Of a stretch of 64,000 bases of DNA, positions 6,986-11,418 are shown one piece after another; position 1 is the stretch's first letter, and every line of letters begins with the position of its first letter. Source of the DNA: Tritonibacter horizontis (lineage in GTDB: Bacteria > Pseudomonadota > Alphaproteobacteria > Rhodobacterales > Rhodobacteraceae); the NCBI RefSeq assembly GCF_001518015.1, contig NZ_LPUY01000134.1:1-64000 (forward strand). Direction: 5' to 3'. The translations under genes and the position numbers were made by a program. The notes below the pieces were generated by a model. The model saw only the letters and a list, made by a program, of their open reading frames with translations, was not told the DNA's origin and ran no database searches.

Positions 6986-7564
6986 ATGGCAGGCCCCGAA
7001 GAGATACTGGAATTCTGGCTCGACGACGTCGGAGAAAGTGGCTGGTATCGCCAAGACGACGCGCTCGACGCGGAAATCCGCAGCAGGTTCGAAGAGACCT
7101 GGACCCTCGCCAGCGAAGGCAACTTTTCTCTCTGGCTGACCTATCCCAGCGGTGTGCTGGCCTATATCATCCTGATGGACCAGTTCCCGCGCAATATGTT
7201 CCGCGGCGCGGGCAAGGCCTTTGCCACCGACCATCCGGCGCTGGCGGCGGCCAAGGCGGCGGTGGATCGCAAATGGGATCTGCGTATCGATGAGCCGGCG
7301 CGTCAGTTCTTTTACCTGCCGATGATGCATTCCGAGAGCCTGTGTGATCAGGACCGCTGCGTGCGCCTGATGCACGAGCGGCTGCCGAAAACCGGTGGCT
7401 CCAACCTGCTGCACGCACGCGCCCACCGCGAGGTTATTCGCCTCTTCGGTCGCTTCCCCTACCGCAACGACGCGCTGAGCCGGTCCAGCACTGCGCCAGA
7501 GCGCGATTATGTCGATGCTGGCGGCTATGTCACAACCGTGCGGGAGCTTCAGGCCATCGCCTGA
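6986..7564 (+). CDS. DUF924 family protein
   Basis: This 192-aa all-helical cytoplasmic protein belongs to the DUF924 family. Characteristic elements are EILEFWL near the N-terminus, DQFPRNMFRG (residues ~67-76), FFYLPMMHSE, and HREVIRLFGRFPYRN near the C-terminus. The family is TPR-like in fold and has no assigned biochemical role. ATG 6986 follows GGTGGAG. A strong terminator follows the gene, so it is probably monocistronic. Confidence 0.9.
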   Translation: MAGPEEILEFWLDDVGESGWYRQDDALDAEIRSRFEETWTLASEGNFSLWLTYPSGVLAYIILMDQFPRNMFRGAGKAFATDHPALAAAKAAVDRKWDLRIDEPARQFFYLPMMHSESLCDQDRCVRLMHERLPKTGGSNLLHARAHREVIRLFGRFPYRNDALSRSSTAPERDYVDAGGYVTTVRELQAIA

Positions 7565-7616
7565 GCCCCCCATATCAACCCAGATCCGACGCCATGCGGT
7601 AAGGTGATCTGACAAT

Positions 7617-7652
7617 CGGCCCGGAGCGTTGCAACCGCTCGGGGCCGTTTTT
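7617..7652 (+). terminator. Rho-independent terminator after the DUF924 gene
   Basis: CGGCCCGGAGCG and CGCTCGGGGCCG form a 12-bp stem with one mismatch around a 7-nt loop, followed by TTTTTGTG. Confidence 0.85.
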
Positions 7653-7728
7653 GTGACCGGTCGCGCGCGCGGGCGGCGTGCCACCTGGGCCACCGGGGTG
7701 TCCTGCCATCGGTGCGGCCGTGCTGTCA

Positions 7729-7782
7729 TGAAAATTTCACTTTGTCGGCGCTCCACAATTCAGTATTCCATGAAATATGGAA
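7729..7782 (+). promoter_or_regulatory. Candidate ArsR operators of the arsenic operon
   Basis: Two palindromes sit directly upstream of the ArsR-ArsC gene. One is TGAAAATTTCA at 7729-7739. The second, TTCCAT-GAAAT-ATGGAA at 7766-7782, has perfect 6-bp arms and its right arm covers the start codon. Autoregulated ArsR repressors usually bind such dyads over their own promoter; binding here is inferred. Confidence 0.55.
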
Positions 7783-8610
7783 AAAGAAATTCCCGACCAA
7801 CTGGCCACGCTGGGCCACCCGCAAAGACTGGCGCTGTTTCGGCTGCTGATGCGGCGCTTTCCCGACCGGGTTCCGGCGGGCGAACTGGCCTCCGTGCTCG
7901 GCATCAAGGCGAGCACCATGTCAACCTATCTGTCCGCCCTGACGCGGCACCAGCTGGTGGAACAGCAGCGGGCAGGGACCTCCATTCTCTACGCGATCAA
8001 TATGACCACAGTGCAACGGCTGTTTGGCTATCTGTTTAGCGATTGCTGCCGTGGGCGCCCCGACATTTGTATGGATTTCAGCACAGGACCTGCTCCAATG
8101 ACGGACCGGAAATACAACGTTCTTTTTATCTGCGTGGGAAATTCCGCGCGCTCCATTTTTGCCGAGTCGATCCTGCGCAAATCCGCAGGGGATCGGTTCA
8201 ATGTCTTTTCGGCGGGCACCCGTCCGGGGTCACAACTGAACCCGTTTGCGGTGCAGGTTCTAAAGGACAAGGGACACGACATTTCGCCGCTGCGGTCCAA
8301 GGATGTATCAGAGTTTTCACAGGCAAATGCCCCGCATTTTGATTTTGTGTTCACTGTTTGCGATCAGGCGGCGAACGAGGAATGTCCCGCTTGGGAGGGG
8401 CAGCCGTTGACCGGTCATTGGGGGTTGCCCGATCCGGTCAAGGCCGAAGGAAACGATGCGCAAAAGGCCCTGGCGTTTCAGGAATCCTATGGTGCGCTGA
8501 AGCATCGGATCGACCTTTTTACCGCGCTCAACGTGGACCCGCTGAGCCGCCTGGCCCTGCAACACGCCATTGATGACATCGGCCGCTCCGGCGCGGAGGT
8601 GGGCGCATGA
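7777..8610 (+). CDS. ArsR-ArsC fusion: arsenic-responsive repressor joined to LMW-PTP-type arsenate reductase
   Basis: A 277-aa two-domain protein. Residues 1-~100 are a winged-helix ArsR repressor ([12 protein letters not shown]..., recognition region [18 protein letters not shown]) ending in a cysteine cluster C90-C91-x6-C98, like the As(III) triad of Acidithiobacillus-type ArsR. Residues ~110-277 are an arsenate reductase of the low-molecular-weight phosphatase fold: P-loop C119-VGNSA-R125 (CX5R), catalytic D219-P220, and candidate shuttle cysteines C195 and C203. One polypeptide would therefore sense arsenite and produce it from arsenate. The downstream GAPDH gene overlaps by ATGA, so the two are translationally coupled. 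The ATG is defined by the frame and by the ArsR domain boundary. Confidence 0.9.
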
Positions 8611-9605
8611 CCACCTACGCATTGAACGGTCTTGGCCGCATGGGCAAGCTCGCCCTGAAACCGCTGTTGCAACGGGGGGCCAACATCGCCTGGATCAACG
8701 ATGCGGTCGGCGATCCTGAGATGCACGCGCATCTGCTGGAGTTCGACACGGTACATGGCCGGTGGGCAGCAGAGTTTTCTCATGACGCAGAGAGCGTGAC
8801 CATCGACGGCACGCGGCTGCCATTTGTCGGCGCAAAGGCGATTTCCGATCTGCCGCTGGCGGGCGTCGACGTGGTGATTGACTGCACTGGCGTGTTCAAA
8901 ATCGAGGCCAAGCTGGCGCCCTATTTCGACGCTGGTGTGAAAAAGGTGGTGGTCTCTGCGCCCGTCAAGGACGGCAATGCGGCCAATATCGTCTATGGCA
9001 TCAACAGTGAAACCTATGATCCGGTGCAACACCGGATCGTTACGGCCGCGTCCTGCACCACCAATTGCCTGGCGCCGTTGGTGAAGGTCGTGCACGAGAC
9101 CTTTGGCATCAAACACGGCTCGATCACCACGATCCATGACGTGACCAACACCCAGACCATCGTTGACCGGCCGGCAAAGGATCTGCGGCGGGCACGTTCG
9201 GCGCTCAATTCGCTGATCCCGACCACGACCGGCTCTGCCACGGCGATCACGCTGATCTATCCGGAGCTGACGGGACGGCTGAATGGCCATGCGGTGCGGG
9301 TGCCGCTGCTGAACGGGTCGCTGACCGATTGCGTCTTTGAGCTCCAGCGCGAGACCACTGCCGAAGAGGTCAACGCCGCCTTTGAGGCCGCAGCCAATGG
9401 GGCGCTCAAGGGGATCCTCGGTTACGAGACCCGCCCGCTGGTGTCGACCGACTACACCAACGACCCCCGCAGCGCGATCATCGACGCGCCATCCACCATG
9501 GTCATCAACGGCACGCAGCTGAAGGTCTATGCCTGGTACGACAACGAATGGGGCTATGCGCATCGTCTGGCGGATGTGGCGCTGATGGTCGGAGCCTCGG
9601 TGTGA
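8607..9605 (+). CDS. ArsJ-associated glyceraldehyde-3-phosphate dehydrogenase
   Basis: A 332-aa type I GAPDH. The Rossmann motif is NGLGRMGK, the catalytic cysteine is C150 in SCTTNCLAP and the partner histidine is H177. Residues N31-D32 keep the Asp that favours NAD. Because it lies between arsR-arsC and arsJ with four-base overlaps on both sides, it is the specialised enzyme that puts arsenate in place of phosphate to form 1-arseno-3-phosphoglycerate, the ArsJ substrate. That role is established for GAPDH/ArsJ pairs elsewhere and is inferred here from synteny. It is distinct from the housekeeping gap at 27382-28383. Confidence 0.92.
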
Positions 9606-10873
9606 CTGCCGCGTCCCGTCCCGAAGGCCTGTCCGCCTATATCGCCGTAACCGCCGCCTATTGGGCCTTTATGCTGACCGATGGGGCGCTGCGGATGTTG
9701 GTGCTGTTGCATTTCCACACGCTGGGCTTCAGCCCGGTCCAGCTGGCCTATCTCTTTGTTCTCTACGAGGTGGCGGGCATGGTCACCAATCTCGCCGCCG
9801 GCTGGATCGCGGTGCGGTTTGGTCTGACCTCGACGCTTTATGCCGGGTTGGCGTTGCAGGTCGTGGCGCTGCTGGCGCTGACGCAGCTCGACCCCAGCTG
9901 GAGCATCGCGCTGTCGGTAGGCTTTGTCATGTGTGTGCAGGGCCTGTCAGGGGTGGCCAAGGACCTGGCCAAGATGTCATCGAAATCGGCGGTCAAGCTG
10001 TTGGCGCCCTCCGGCGACGGCGGCCTGTTTCGCTGGGTGGCGGTGCTGACCGGATCCAAGAACGCGGTCAAGGGGCTGGGCTTTCTGCTGGGCGCGGCGC
10101 TGTTGGCCGTCTTTGGCTTCGTCTGGGCCGTGCTTGCCATGGCCGTCGTGCTGGGCGCGATCCTGCTGGCGGTGGTTCTGTTCATGCCCGTGGGTCTGCC
10201 CAAGGGCCGCAAGGGCACCAAATTCTCCGAGATCTTTTCCAAATCCGCCAATGTGAACTGGCTGTCGGCGGCGCGCGTGTTTCTGTTTGGTGCCCGCGAT
10301 GTCTGGTTCGTGGTCGGGATCCCGATCTATTTCTACGCGGTGCTGTCTGATGGCACGGAAGAGGGCAACCGGGGCGCATTTTTCATCATCGGGACGTTTA
10401 TGGCGGTCTGGGTGATCCTCTACGGAATGGTGCAGGCCAGCGCGCCGAAGATCCTGCGTGCCGCTGCCCGTCCCGAGGCCGAATTGATCCGGGCCGCCCG
10501 CACCTGGGCGCTGGCCCTTGTCGTCGTGCCGGCCGGGTTGACGCTGGCGCTGGCCCTGTCGCCGACGCCACAGCCCTGGCTGACGGGGACGCTTGTGGCG
10601 GGGCTCTTGGCGTTTGGTGCGCTCTTTGCGGTGAATTCGTCACTGCATTCCTACCTGATCCTCGCGTTTTCCCGATCCGAGCGTGTGACGATGGATGTCG
10701 GGTTTTACTATATGGCCAATGCCGGCGGTCGGCTGACGGGCACGCTGCTGTCGGGCCTGACCTACCAGATTGGCGGGTTGACGCTGGTTATGGGCACCTC
10801 GGCGGTGCTGGTGGCATTGGCGGCGCTGACCTCCGGCCGGTTGAGCGATCAAAACAGCGCGGTGACGGTCTGA
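9602..10873 (+). CDS. arsJ: ArsJ, organoarsenical (1-arseno-3-phosphoglycerate) efflux MFS permease
   Basis: A 423-aa membrane protein with about 12 transmembrane segments. The ArsJ family pattern is clear: [21 protein letters not shown] near the N-terminus, [36 protein letters not shown], and [17 protein letters not shown]. It exports the unstable arsenate ester formed by the preceding GAPDH. The start is the GTG at 9602, which overlaps the GAPDH stop codon as GTGA; the frame also stays open to 9548 but that would run deep into GAPDH. Confidence 0.93.
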
Positions 10874-11157
10874 ATGTTTTGAACGCTACCTGAGCGTCCG
10901 GGCCGGACTGGCGATAATCGTCGGGGTGCTGATCGGGCAGGGCGCGCCCTGGCTGGTTAGTGCCATTGCCGCGACCGAGGTCGCCAGTGTGGCCCGGGTG
11001 GTGGCAGTGCAGATCTGGGCGATGGTCGATCCGATGATGGTCGGCGTGGAGTGTGGCGCCGTGGCCCGTGTGGCGCGCCAGCCCAAGGGGCTGCTGGTGA
11101 CATTGGTGGTCAACTGGTTGATCAAACCCTTCAACATGGCGCTGGTGGCCTTTGCCA
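10872..11157 (+). pseudogene. Truncated ACR3 arsenite efflux permease remnant
   Basis: Reading from 10872 in the frame of 10926 gives about 95 residues that match the start of ACR3 carriers: FERYLSVRAGLAIIVGVLIGQ, then VAVQIWAMVDPMMVGVECGAV and RQPKGLLVTLVVNWLIKPFNMAL. Similarity stops after about 11145-11157, where the frame runs into unrelated basic sequence, and roughly three quarters of the protein is missing. No proper start codon or ribosome-binding site is visible; the segment begins within the arsJ stop codon. I read it as a decayed acr3 that once closed the operon. Confidence 0.8.
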
Positions 11158-11418
11158 ATCGAACCCGCGCCAGGTTTCCGGAGCCTCTGCCCTGCCACAG
11201 GTGGGTGCGGATCAGATTCCGGCGACGTTTTGCCCGCCAGAGGGATTTCTGTTTTACGGCAAGGCCAGGCTGTTGCTAGGCTCAATGTGCATAAATCAAC
11301 CGCTCTCTGGCGGCAACTTCCCGCAGGGTGCGCCTGGCATCGCGTTGGGTTGTTGCGGCCTGCAGGAAATTAGTTTAACGGTGAACTAGTTTTGGATCTT
11401 TGTTCATGAGGGAACACA
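11158..11418. other. Intergenic region downstream of the acr3 remnant, including the lpdA leader
   Basis: No gene is supported here. Short frames (for example 11152-11373) resemble nothing known and are probably leftovers of the deletion that removed the rest of acr3. The last ~60 bp are A/T-richer and should contain the lpdA promoter; a GAGGGAA Shine-Dalgarno precedes the lpdA ATG. Confidence 0.5.

What the first reader, a model, noticed from the sequence alone, without database searches (positions are those of the whole stretch)
7777..10873. Arsenic operon with an ArsR-ArsC fusion feeding a GAPDH-ArsJ pair
Seen: one 277-aa protein combines an ArsR repressor (As(III)-type Cys90/91/98) with an LMW-PTP arsenate reductase (CX5R at 119-125), followed by GAPDH and ArsJ in overlapping frames (ATGA, GTGA). 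Known: GAPDH plus ArsJ detoxify arsenate by exporting 1-arseno-3-phosphoglycerate. Inference: sensor and reductase share one chain, so ArsC would generate As(III) beside its sensor, and two arsenate routes compete in one transcript.
Basis: partly seen in the sequence, partly recalled or inferred. Interest (0 to 1): 0.72.

Follow-up and report, generated by a model that had tools for sequence, protein, structure and literature searches.

The report
ArsR-ArsC arsenate-sensing repressor of arsenate export
A marine-type bacterium joins its arsenic-sensing gene switch to an arsenate-converting enzyme; relatives keep this joined protein next to an arsenate exporter, and some keep the enzyme's active site while losing the switch's known arsenic-binding cysteines, which hints that the enzyme part is the sensor.

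Summary
Window 7777-10873 encodes an intact 277-aa ArsR-ArsC fusion, an ArsJ-associated GAPDH and ArsJ in overlapping frames. The operon is not rare: ArsJ was found in 197 of 296 genomes searched in the family (inferred Rhodobacteraceae), and the fusion directly precedes GAPDH-ArsJ in 49 of 60 ArsJ loci fetched. ArsR-ArsC fusions are already in print.

(2) In 123 distinct ArsJ-linked fusions, six ArsC active-site residues never vary, but the ArsR arsenite triad is broken in 16, in 11 of them with no cysteine left in the ArsR half; the operator dyad persists. (3) A PHO-box-like repeat sits at 7723-7740.

Best reading: the fusion is an autorepressor that makes an arsenate exporter respond to arsenate, perhaps primed by phosphate limitation. 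In the window, which keeps the triad, ArsC probably makes As(III) for it. In the Cys-free clade the ArsC site itself may be the sensor. None of this is tested by experiment.

The parts
7723..7740 (+). PHO-box-like direct repeat CTGTCAT-GAAA-ATTTCAC (putative PhoB site), starting 54 bases before the start codon
   Evidence: Score 13 of 14; best of all positions in the window, both strands; consensus (two CTGTCAT repeats, 4-nt A/T-rich spacer) from a passage of PMC3131613. Binding not tested.
7757..7776 (+). Putative ArsR operator: imperfect dyad AATTCA-N8-TGAAAT (5 of 6 pairs) directly before the start codon
   Evidence: Same place and form in relatives: pairs -18/-3, -17/-4, -16/-5 complementary in 112, 117 and 102 of 119 triad-intact fusions.
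7777..8610 (+). ArsR-ArsC fusion, 277 aa: ArsR about 1-98 (Cys90/91/98), linker about 99-112, ArsC about 113-277 (Cys119, Arg125, Cys195, Cys203)
8607..9605 (+). ArsJ-associated GAPDH (overlaps the fusion by ATGA)
   Evidence: NF033735 547.8 bits, cut-off 450
9602..10873 (+). ArsJ, MFS permease (GTG start, overlaps GAPDH by GTGA)
   Evidence: NF033734 541 bits, cut-off 400
10842..11186 (+). Broken acr3 (the DNA match to a relative begins inside the end of arsJ): head and tail kept, about 690 bp of the middle missing; no start codon in its frame before GTG 10926
   Evidence: TIGR00832 positions 3-95 of 327, below cut-off; DNA of relative L028 around acr3, nt 9-318 and 998-1047 of the stretch compared, matches 10842-11150 and 11137-11186; ORF and sequence

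Best explanation
The 277-aa protein is an autorepressor that makes an arsenate-export operon respond to arsenate. Its ArsR half binds the dyad just before its own start codon and keeps the operon low. When arsenate enters the cell, the ArsC half reduces it, and in this genome the As(III) is captured by the Cys90/91/98 triad of the same or the partner chain, releasing the DNA. GAPDH then turns arsenate and glyceraldehyde-3-phosphate into 1-arseno-3-phosphoglycerate and ArsJ exports it. A PHO box would add PhoB activation under phosphate limitation, when phosphate transporters also bring arsenate in. The ArsC activity serves mainly to generate or transduce the signal; bulk As(III) removal is left to the separate acr3-arsC-arsH locus elsewhere in the genome. 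Shown by sequence: gene order, residues, operator and PHO-box-like conservation, loss of acr3. Inferred: DNA binding, reductase activity, arsenate as effector, PhoB control. GAPDH-ArsJ chemistry rests on published work.
For: Fusion directly before GAPDH-ArsJ in 49 of 60 ArsJ loci of the family, against 0 of 21 fetched Acr3 loci without ArsJ (20 fetched of the 25 full-length ones listed, plus the window genome's own); an unfetched one, G302, does have a fusion about 1.1 kb from Acr3. ArsC C119/N122/R125/S126/C195/C203 unchanged in 123 of 123 distinct ArsJ-context fusions, D219 in 121; triad broken in 16 of 123. Acr3 is optional: behind arsJ in 13 of the 49, upstream in 1, partial in 2, not seen in 33, and broken in the window. 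18 of 60 ArsJ genomes have no Acr3 hit, 60 of 61 (own genome included) no ArsB, and 8 of those 18 no MIP channel; 7 of these 8 carry the fusion. Operator dyad present in all groups. PHO-box score of 12 or more in 34 of 162 upstream regions against 0.1 expected. Two folded domains, low-confidence linker 100-109. Passages read: a V. cholerae arsR-GAPDH-VarH-ArsJ operon is arsenate-inducible although no As(III) is produced (PMC9601151).
Against: No experiment shows DNA release by arsenate or PhoB binding. The fusion-ArsJ linkage is mostly one ancestry, so 49 loci are not 49 independent events. The ArsC domain scores below the curated cut-off of the thioredoxin-ArsC model (80.1 against 174.3 bits). 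Some fusions sit with an aquaporin (4 of 80) or with Acr3 and no ArsJ (2 of 80) in the set fetched by similarity to the fusion, and L274 with Acr3. 10 of the 18 Acr3-free genomes do have a MIP channel that could pass As(III), and exporters such as ArsP or ArsK were not searched for. The PHO-like site is in the minority of triad-intact operons: score 11 or more in 16 of 119, against 20 of 28 Cys-free and 9 of 15 others.
Confidence: 0.57

Rival explanations
1. Bifunctional convenience: the ArsR half is an ordinary As(III) repressor and the ArsC half an ordinary detoxifying reductase feeding an Acr3 pump or an aquaglyceroporin; fusion only keeps their dosage equal.
For: Triad intact in 107 of 123 ArsJ-context fusions. 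Acr3 lies behind ArsJ in 9 of 12 complete relatives in the genus. An intact acr3 exists at C12 in this genome. A second fusion class is followed by an aquaporin.
Against: 33 of 49 sampled operons have no acr3 in the stretch fetched. 7 genomes have the fusion with no Acr3, ArsB or MIP found. The repressor triad is broken in several lineages while ArsC is kept. This genome's C12 locus already has its own ArsC next to acr3.
Confidence: 0.28
2. The fusion is a relic with one dead half: the reductase or the repressor no longer works and the frame is merely still open.
For: ArsC and ArsR domains score under NCBIfam cut-offs. Triad broken throughout one clade.
Against: Six active-site residues invariant in 123 of 123. 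Operator dyad kept, with an inner pair changed on both sides in the Cys-free clade.
Confidence: 0.07
3. The two domains are made separately from an internal start at Met107, so there is no functional fusion.
For: An in-frame ATG precedes the ArsC core in the window; 104 of 138 distinct fusions have a Met in the linker.
Against: 34 of 138 have no Met in the linker. No family ArsJ locus of 60 has the two as separate neighbouring genes. Linker length varies from 12 to 39 residues in fusions that were, however, chosen for an open frame.
Confidence: 0.05

Closest known systems
ArsR-ArsC fusions (Leptospirillum ferriphilum arsRC, Microbacterium, Sinorhizobium; actinobacterial ArsR-ArsC2 clusters)
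   Same: Same domain pair; described in PMC6205960 (passages), PMC6514093 (passages) and PMC4443643 (passages).
   Different: In L. ferriphilum YSK the fusion is beside arsU and arsB; here it heads GAPDH-ArsJ. In the passages read I saw expression data and models, but no biochemical test of an ArsR-ArsC fusion.
GAPDH-ArsJ arsenate export (P. aeruginosa DK2, Chen et al. 2016, not held, described in PMC6205960; V. cholerae var operon, PMC9601151)
   Same: Same two effector genes; both over NCBIfam cut-offs.
   Different: The var operon uses a stand-alone ArsR and a putative phosphatase VarH; its authors suggest that ArsR probably senses arsenate and note a C-to-A change in the As(III) motif (passage). 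Here the repressor carries an arsenate-reductase domain.
TtSmtB of Thermus thermophilus (PMC5658604)
   Same: ArsR/SmtB repressor released from DNA by arsenate at lower concentration than by arsenite (passages).
   Different: Not fused to ArsC; it regulates a separate arsC gene.
ArsR-methyltransferase fusion of Brevundimonas M20 (PMC10190100)
   Same: An ArsR repressor fused to an arsenic-transforming enzyme; binds its own promoter (abstract).
   Different: Enzyme half is a methyltransferase acting on As(III).

Membership tests
ArsR/SmtB repressor, A. ferrooxidans type | Winged-helix ArsR fold | tested here: met
   PF12840 27.4 bits against cut-off 27; aligns to PDB 6j05 'Transcriptional regulator ArsR', E 2.6e-10. 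NF033788 at 48.9 bits is below its cut-off 55.
ArsR/SmtB repressor, A. ferrooxidans type | As(III) triad CC-x6-C at the end of the last ArsR helix (assignment to this type recalled; a passage names conserved As(III)-binding cysteines in A. ferrooxidans ArsR) | tested here: met
   C90, C91, C98 in the window; kept in 107 of 123 ArsJ-context fusions.
ArsR/SmtB repressor, A. ferrooxidans type | Binds an operator and is released by As(III) | not testable with these tools
   Conserved dyad only.
Thioredoxin-type LMW-PTP arsenate reductase | CX5R loop plus two relay cysteines | tested here: met
   C119, R125, C195, C203 align with solved ArsC chains 1jl3 and 1lju; all four kept in 123 of 123 ArsJ-context fusions.
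Thioredoxin-type LMW-PTP arsenate reductase | Over the curated score of TIGR02691 | tested here: not met
   80.1 bits against 174.3: a relative of the family, not filed as a member.
ArsJ | Over the curated score of NF033734 | tested here: met
   541 against 400 bits.
ArsJ-associated GAPDH | Over the curated score of NF033735; ASCTTNC active-site stretch present (motif recalled) | tested here: met
   547.8 against 450 bits; stretch in the translation.
Pho regulon | PHO-box-like direct repeat before the operon | tested here: met
   7723-7740.
Pho regulon | PhoB binding and induction under phosphate limitation | not testable with these tools
   None.

The most novel reading that the evidence does not exclude
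The ArsC active site is itself the arsenate sensor of the repressor: arsenate binding or the catalytic Cys119-Cys195-Cys203 cycle changes the ArsR dimer and releases DNA, so a working enzyme gates transcription. This would explain why one large clade (Paracoccus, Tabrizicola, Gemmobacter, Rhodobacter and kin) and scattered others have lost the As(III) triad, often every cysteine of the ArsR half, yet keep the operator dyad and the catalytic residues. The operon would combine this with PhoB activation.
Probability: 0.3. Interest if true: 0.75.

Novelty: new variant of a known kind. Interest (0 to 1): 0.52.

Why it matters
How ArsJ operons detect arsenate, when most ArsR proteins detect arsenite, is left open by the V. 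cholerae work (PMC9601151 passage). This family offers a direct test: natural repressors with and without the arsenite site, all fused to an intact arsenate-reductase active site, on a conserved operator. If the enzyme half is the sensor, it is a one-component switch gated by catalysis and a possible arsenate biosensor. The PHO box, where present, would tie arsenate defence to phosphate starvation in roseobacters and their kin.

Tried and rejected
Considered and dropped: that the fusion is a private oddity of this genome; separate translation from Met107. A sigma-70 scan of 7560-7900 found none, but shuffles give 0.1, so this says nothing either way. The genome pattern search for the PHO box used a pattern that I wrote after seeing the window's site, so the exact match there is partly by construction; four other places match with one mismatch, the reversed control gives 1. 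By eye one of the four lies about 80 bases before a putative inositol-monophosphatase gene (L260); the others are not before recognisable phosphate genes. The best PBP_like_2 (PstS-type) locus has overlapping PHO-like repeats (scores 12 and 11), the other two loci score at most 10. [quoted passage not shown]

Biases to keep in mind. The 60 ArsJ loci were picked by hand from the listed (not complete) matches; L059, L081, L090 and L100 are shortened by contig ends. Fusions were called by an open frame across the linker, so openness is by definition. Detection of ArsR, ArsC and Acr3 used family queries; stand-alone genes of other types may be missed, above all in the phylum sample. One fused locus (L164) was mislabelled as unfused (corrected). 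The 162-row set was gathered with a pattern that contains C-x2-NSARS, so those residues are fixed there by construction; (123 of 123) is free of that. 27 of the 162 rows come from a search started with a Cys-free fusion, so 28 of 162 Cys-free is not a frequency; in the 60-locus sample 6 of 49 fusions have a broken triad, 2 of them Cys-free. The start-codon choice favoured GAAAT before the ATG, also the left arm. Tree: quick method, many weak branches; change counts cannot tell gain from loss, and loss is inferred because the aquaporin-type relatives have the triad.

Literature searches that listed no paper on an ArsR-ArsC fusion with ArsJ or as an arsenate sensor: 20 of 42 shown; 20 of 75; 15 of 15; 4 of 4; 12 of 78; 12 of 48; 15 of 2,163; open-licence PMC only, listings and passages.
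Full report
What is there. Searches confirm the three genes and their residues. The fusion (7777-8610), GAPDH (8607-9605) and ArsJ (9602-10873) overlap by ATGA and GTGA. GAPDH and ArsJ pass the NCBIfam cut-offs for the ArsJ-linked pair. Directly behind ArsJ lies a piece of acr3 (10842-11186): its head and tail match an intact relative, about 690 bp are missing between them with a 14-nt overlap at the junction, and no start codon stands in its frame before 10926. The same genome holds an intact acr3 on another contig (C12, L047) with a divergent triad-bearing arsR, an R773-like arsC (name recalled) and arsH. So arsenite export is not lost to the cell, only to this operon.

How common. In the genus, matches over nearly the whole fusion occur in 17 of 18 genomes. 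Of the 19 relative fusion loci fetched, 12 are complete fusion-GAPDH-ArsJ, 9 of them followed by acr3; one is cut by a contig end; 6 are fusion-(arsC)-aquaporin operons. In the family ArsJ is present in 197 of 296 genomes. Of 60 ArsJ loci fetched, 49 have the fusion directly before GAPDH-ArsJ: 13 with acr3 behind arsJ, 1 with acr3 upstream, 2 with partial acr3, 33 with none seen. 11 of 60 have no fusion. In the same family 0 of 21 fetched Acr3 loci without ArsJ carry the fusion (20 of the 25 full-length ones listed, plus the own locus); among those not fetched, G302 has a fusion about 1.1 kb before its Acr3. Of 20 ArsJ loci from other families of the phylum none is fused by this detection. In the class 17 of 289 genomes have a match over nearly the whole query, 15 of them outside the family (one with an internal stop), and 6 of 8 such loci inspected are again fusion-GAPDH-ArsJ. 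Of the 80 fusions most like the family profile elsewhere, 70 are in ArsJ context; their named hosts include Ruegeria, Sulfitobacter, Phaeobacter, Roseovarius and Paracoccus. The window's genus contains a genome whose contig length equals that of a Phaeobacter sp. B1627 record, so a roseobacter is inferred.

Sensor or detoxifier. If the ArsC half fed an arsenite pump, a pump should be kept. 18 of the 60 ArsJ genomes have no Acr3 hit at 1e-10 (2 more have only hits under the cut-off) and 60 of 61, own genome included, no ArsB at 1e-20. 10 of those 18 do have a MIP channel; 8, and also G286 with only an acr3 piece, have none at 1e-10. 7 of these 8 carry the fusion, one of them a single-contig genome (G305); others are less sure, such as G257 (1,060 contigs) and G121 (90% complete). 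Exporters of other kinds were not searched for. In 123 distinct ArsJ-context fusions C119, N122, R125, S126, C195 and C203 are invariant and D219 is kept in 121; the triad is incomplete in 16. Eleven of these have no cysteine before the ArsC core. After a search seeded with one of them, 28 Cys-free fusions are in hand, all with C195 and C203; 28 of the 29 newly gathered fusions are followed by GAPDH. On a tree built without these columns the triad state changes 8 times, at least 3 of them forced by well-supported branches. The window belongs to the triad-intact majority.

Does the Cys-free repressor still bind DNA? The consensus of every group shows a dyad, TTTC-N10-GAAA, that ends at the start codon. 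In triad-intact fusions pairs -18/-3, -17/-4 and -16/-5 are complementary in 112, 117 and 102 of 119; in Cys-free ones in 27, 28 and 28 of 28. The next pair, -15/-6, is complementary in only 57 of 119 triad-intact promoters (39 A-T) but in 22 of 28 Cys-free ones (21 C-G): a two-sided change that keeps or improves the dyad. That argues for a working operator and hence for regulation without the As(III) triad. Of the 11 Cys-free loci of the earlier set, L092 and L182 lie in larger clusters with separate arsR and acr3 genes, L177 has acr3 upstream, L065 acr3 behind, L175 an arsH piece upstream; the other six show only fusion-GAPDH-ArsJ among the genes I looked for. 27 genomes with a broken-triad fusion (18 Cys-free, 9 with one or two cysteines) were checked for Acr3: 14 have no hit, 13 do.

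PHO box. CTGTCATGAAAATTTCAC at 7723-7740 fits the consensus I used at 13 of 14 positions; the published form is two CTGTCAT repeats with a 4-nt A/T-rich spacer (PMC3131613 passage), and the variant second half I allowed is recalled. Scores of 12 or more occur in 34 of 162 upstream regions against 0.1 expected from shuffles; 38 of the 45 sites scoring 11 or more start at -52 to -54. They are commoner in Cys-free (20 of 28) and other broken-triad operons (9 of 15) than in triad-intact ones (16 of 119); nine aquaporin-type rows score 9 or less. In the window it is the best position on either strand. The main PstS-type locus has similar repeats, and the C12 ars promoter has one scoring 12.

Mechanism. 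I take the fusion to be an arsenate-responsive autorepressor for an arsenate exporter. In the window the simplest route is ArsC reduction of As(V) followed by As(III) capture at C90/C91/C98. The Cys-free clade needs another route, most directly the ArsC active site itself. Both are inference. Precedents that ArsR proteins can respond to arsenate are TtSmtB and, as a suggestion by its authors, V. cholerae ArsR of the var operon.

Novelty. ArsR-ArsC fusions and GAPDH-ArsJ are known. I found no paper in the held library on the fusion-GAPDH-ArsJ operon as a class, on its Cys-free clade or on its PHO box (listings; partial lists, see Tried and rejected).

Noticed in passing
window 10842-11186: Broken acr3 behind arsJ: internal loss of about 690 bp with a 14-nt overlap at the junction; partial acr3 pieces also follow arsJ in L055 and L081.
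   Followed up: yes
L047 (own genome, contig C12, about 180020-183000): Second ars locus: divergent arsR with CC-x6-C, acr3, R773-like arsC, arsH and, by eye, an MFS gene, beside what looks by eye like an integrase fragment; its intergenic region also holds a PHO-like repeat (score 12).
   Followed up: partly
L041-L046, L164, L166, L167: A second class of fusion operon, fusion-(arsC)-aquaporin; in L041 and L046 a neighbour looks by eye like mfd. Some of these fusions have lost the third ArsC cysteine (C203 missing in 4 of 8).
   Followed up: partly
window 7757-7779: The operator dyad ends at the start codon in most relatives, leaving little room for a ribosome-binding site: the transcript may be leaderless.
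   Followed up: no
L220: ArsR next to GAPDH-ArsJ in another family of the phylum has a single Cys (26), which recalls the suggested arsenate-sensing ArsR of V. cholerae; loss of the As(III) site may be a wider trend of ArsJ operons.
   Followed up: no
window 6986-7564: DUF924 protein gene directly upstream of the ars operon; no link to arsenic seen.
   Followed up: no
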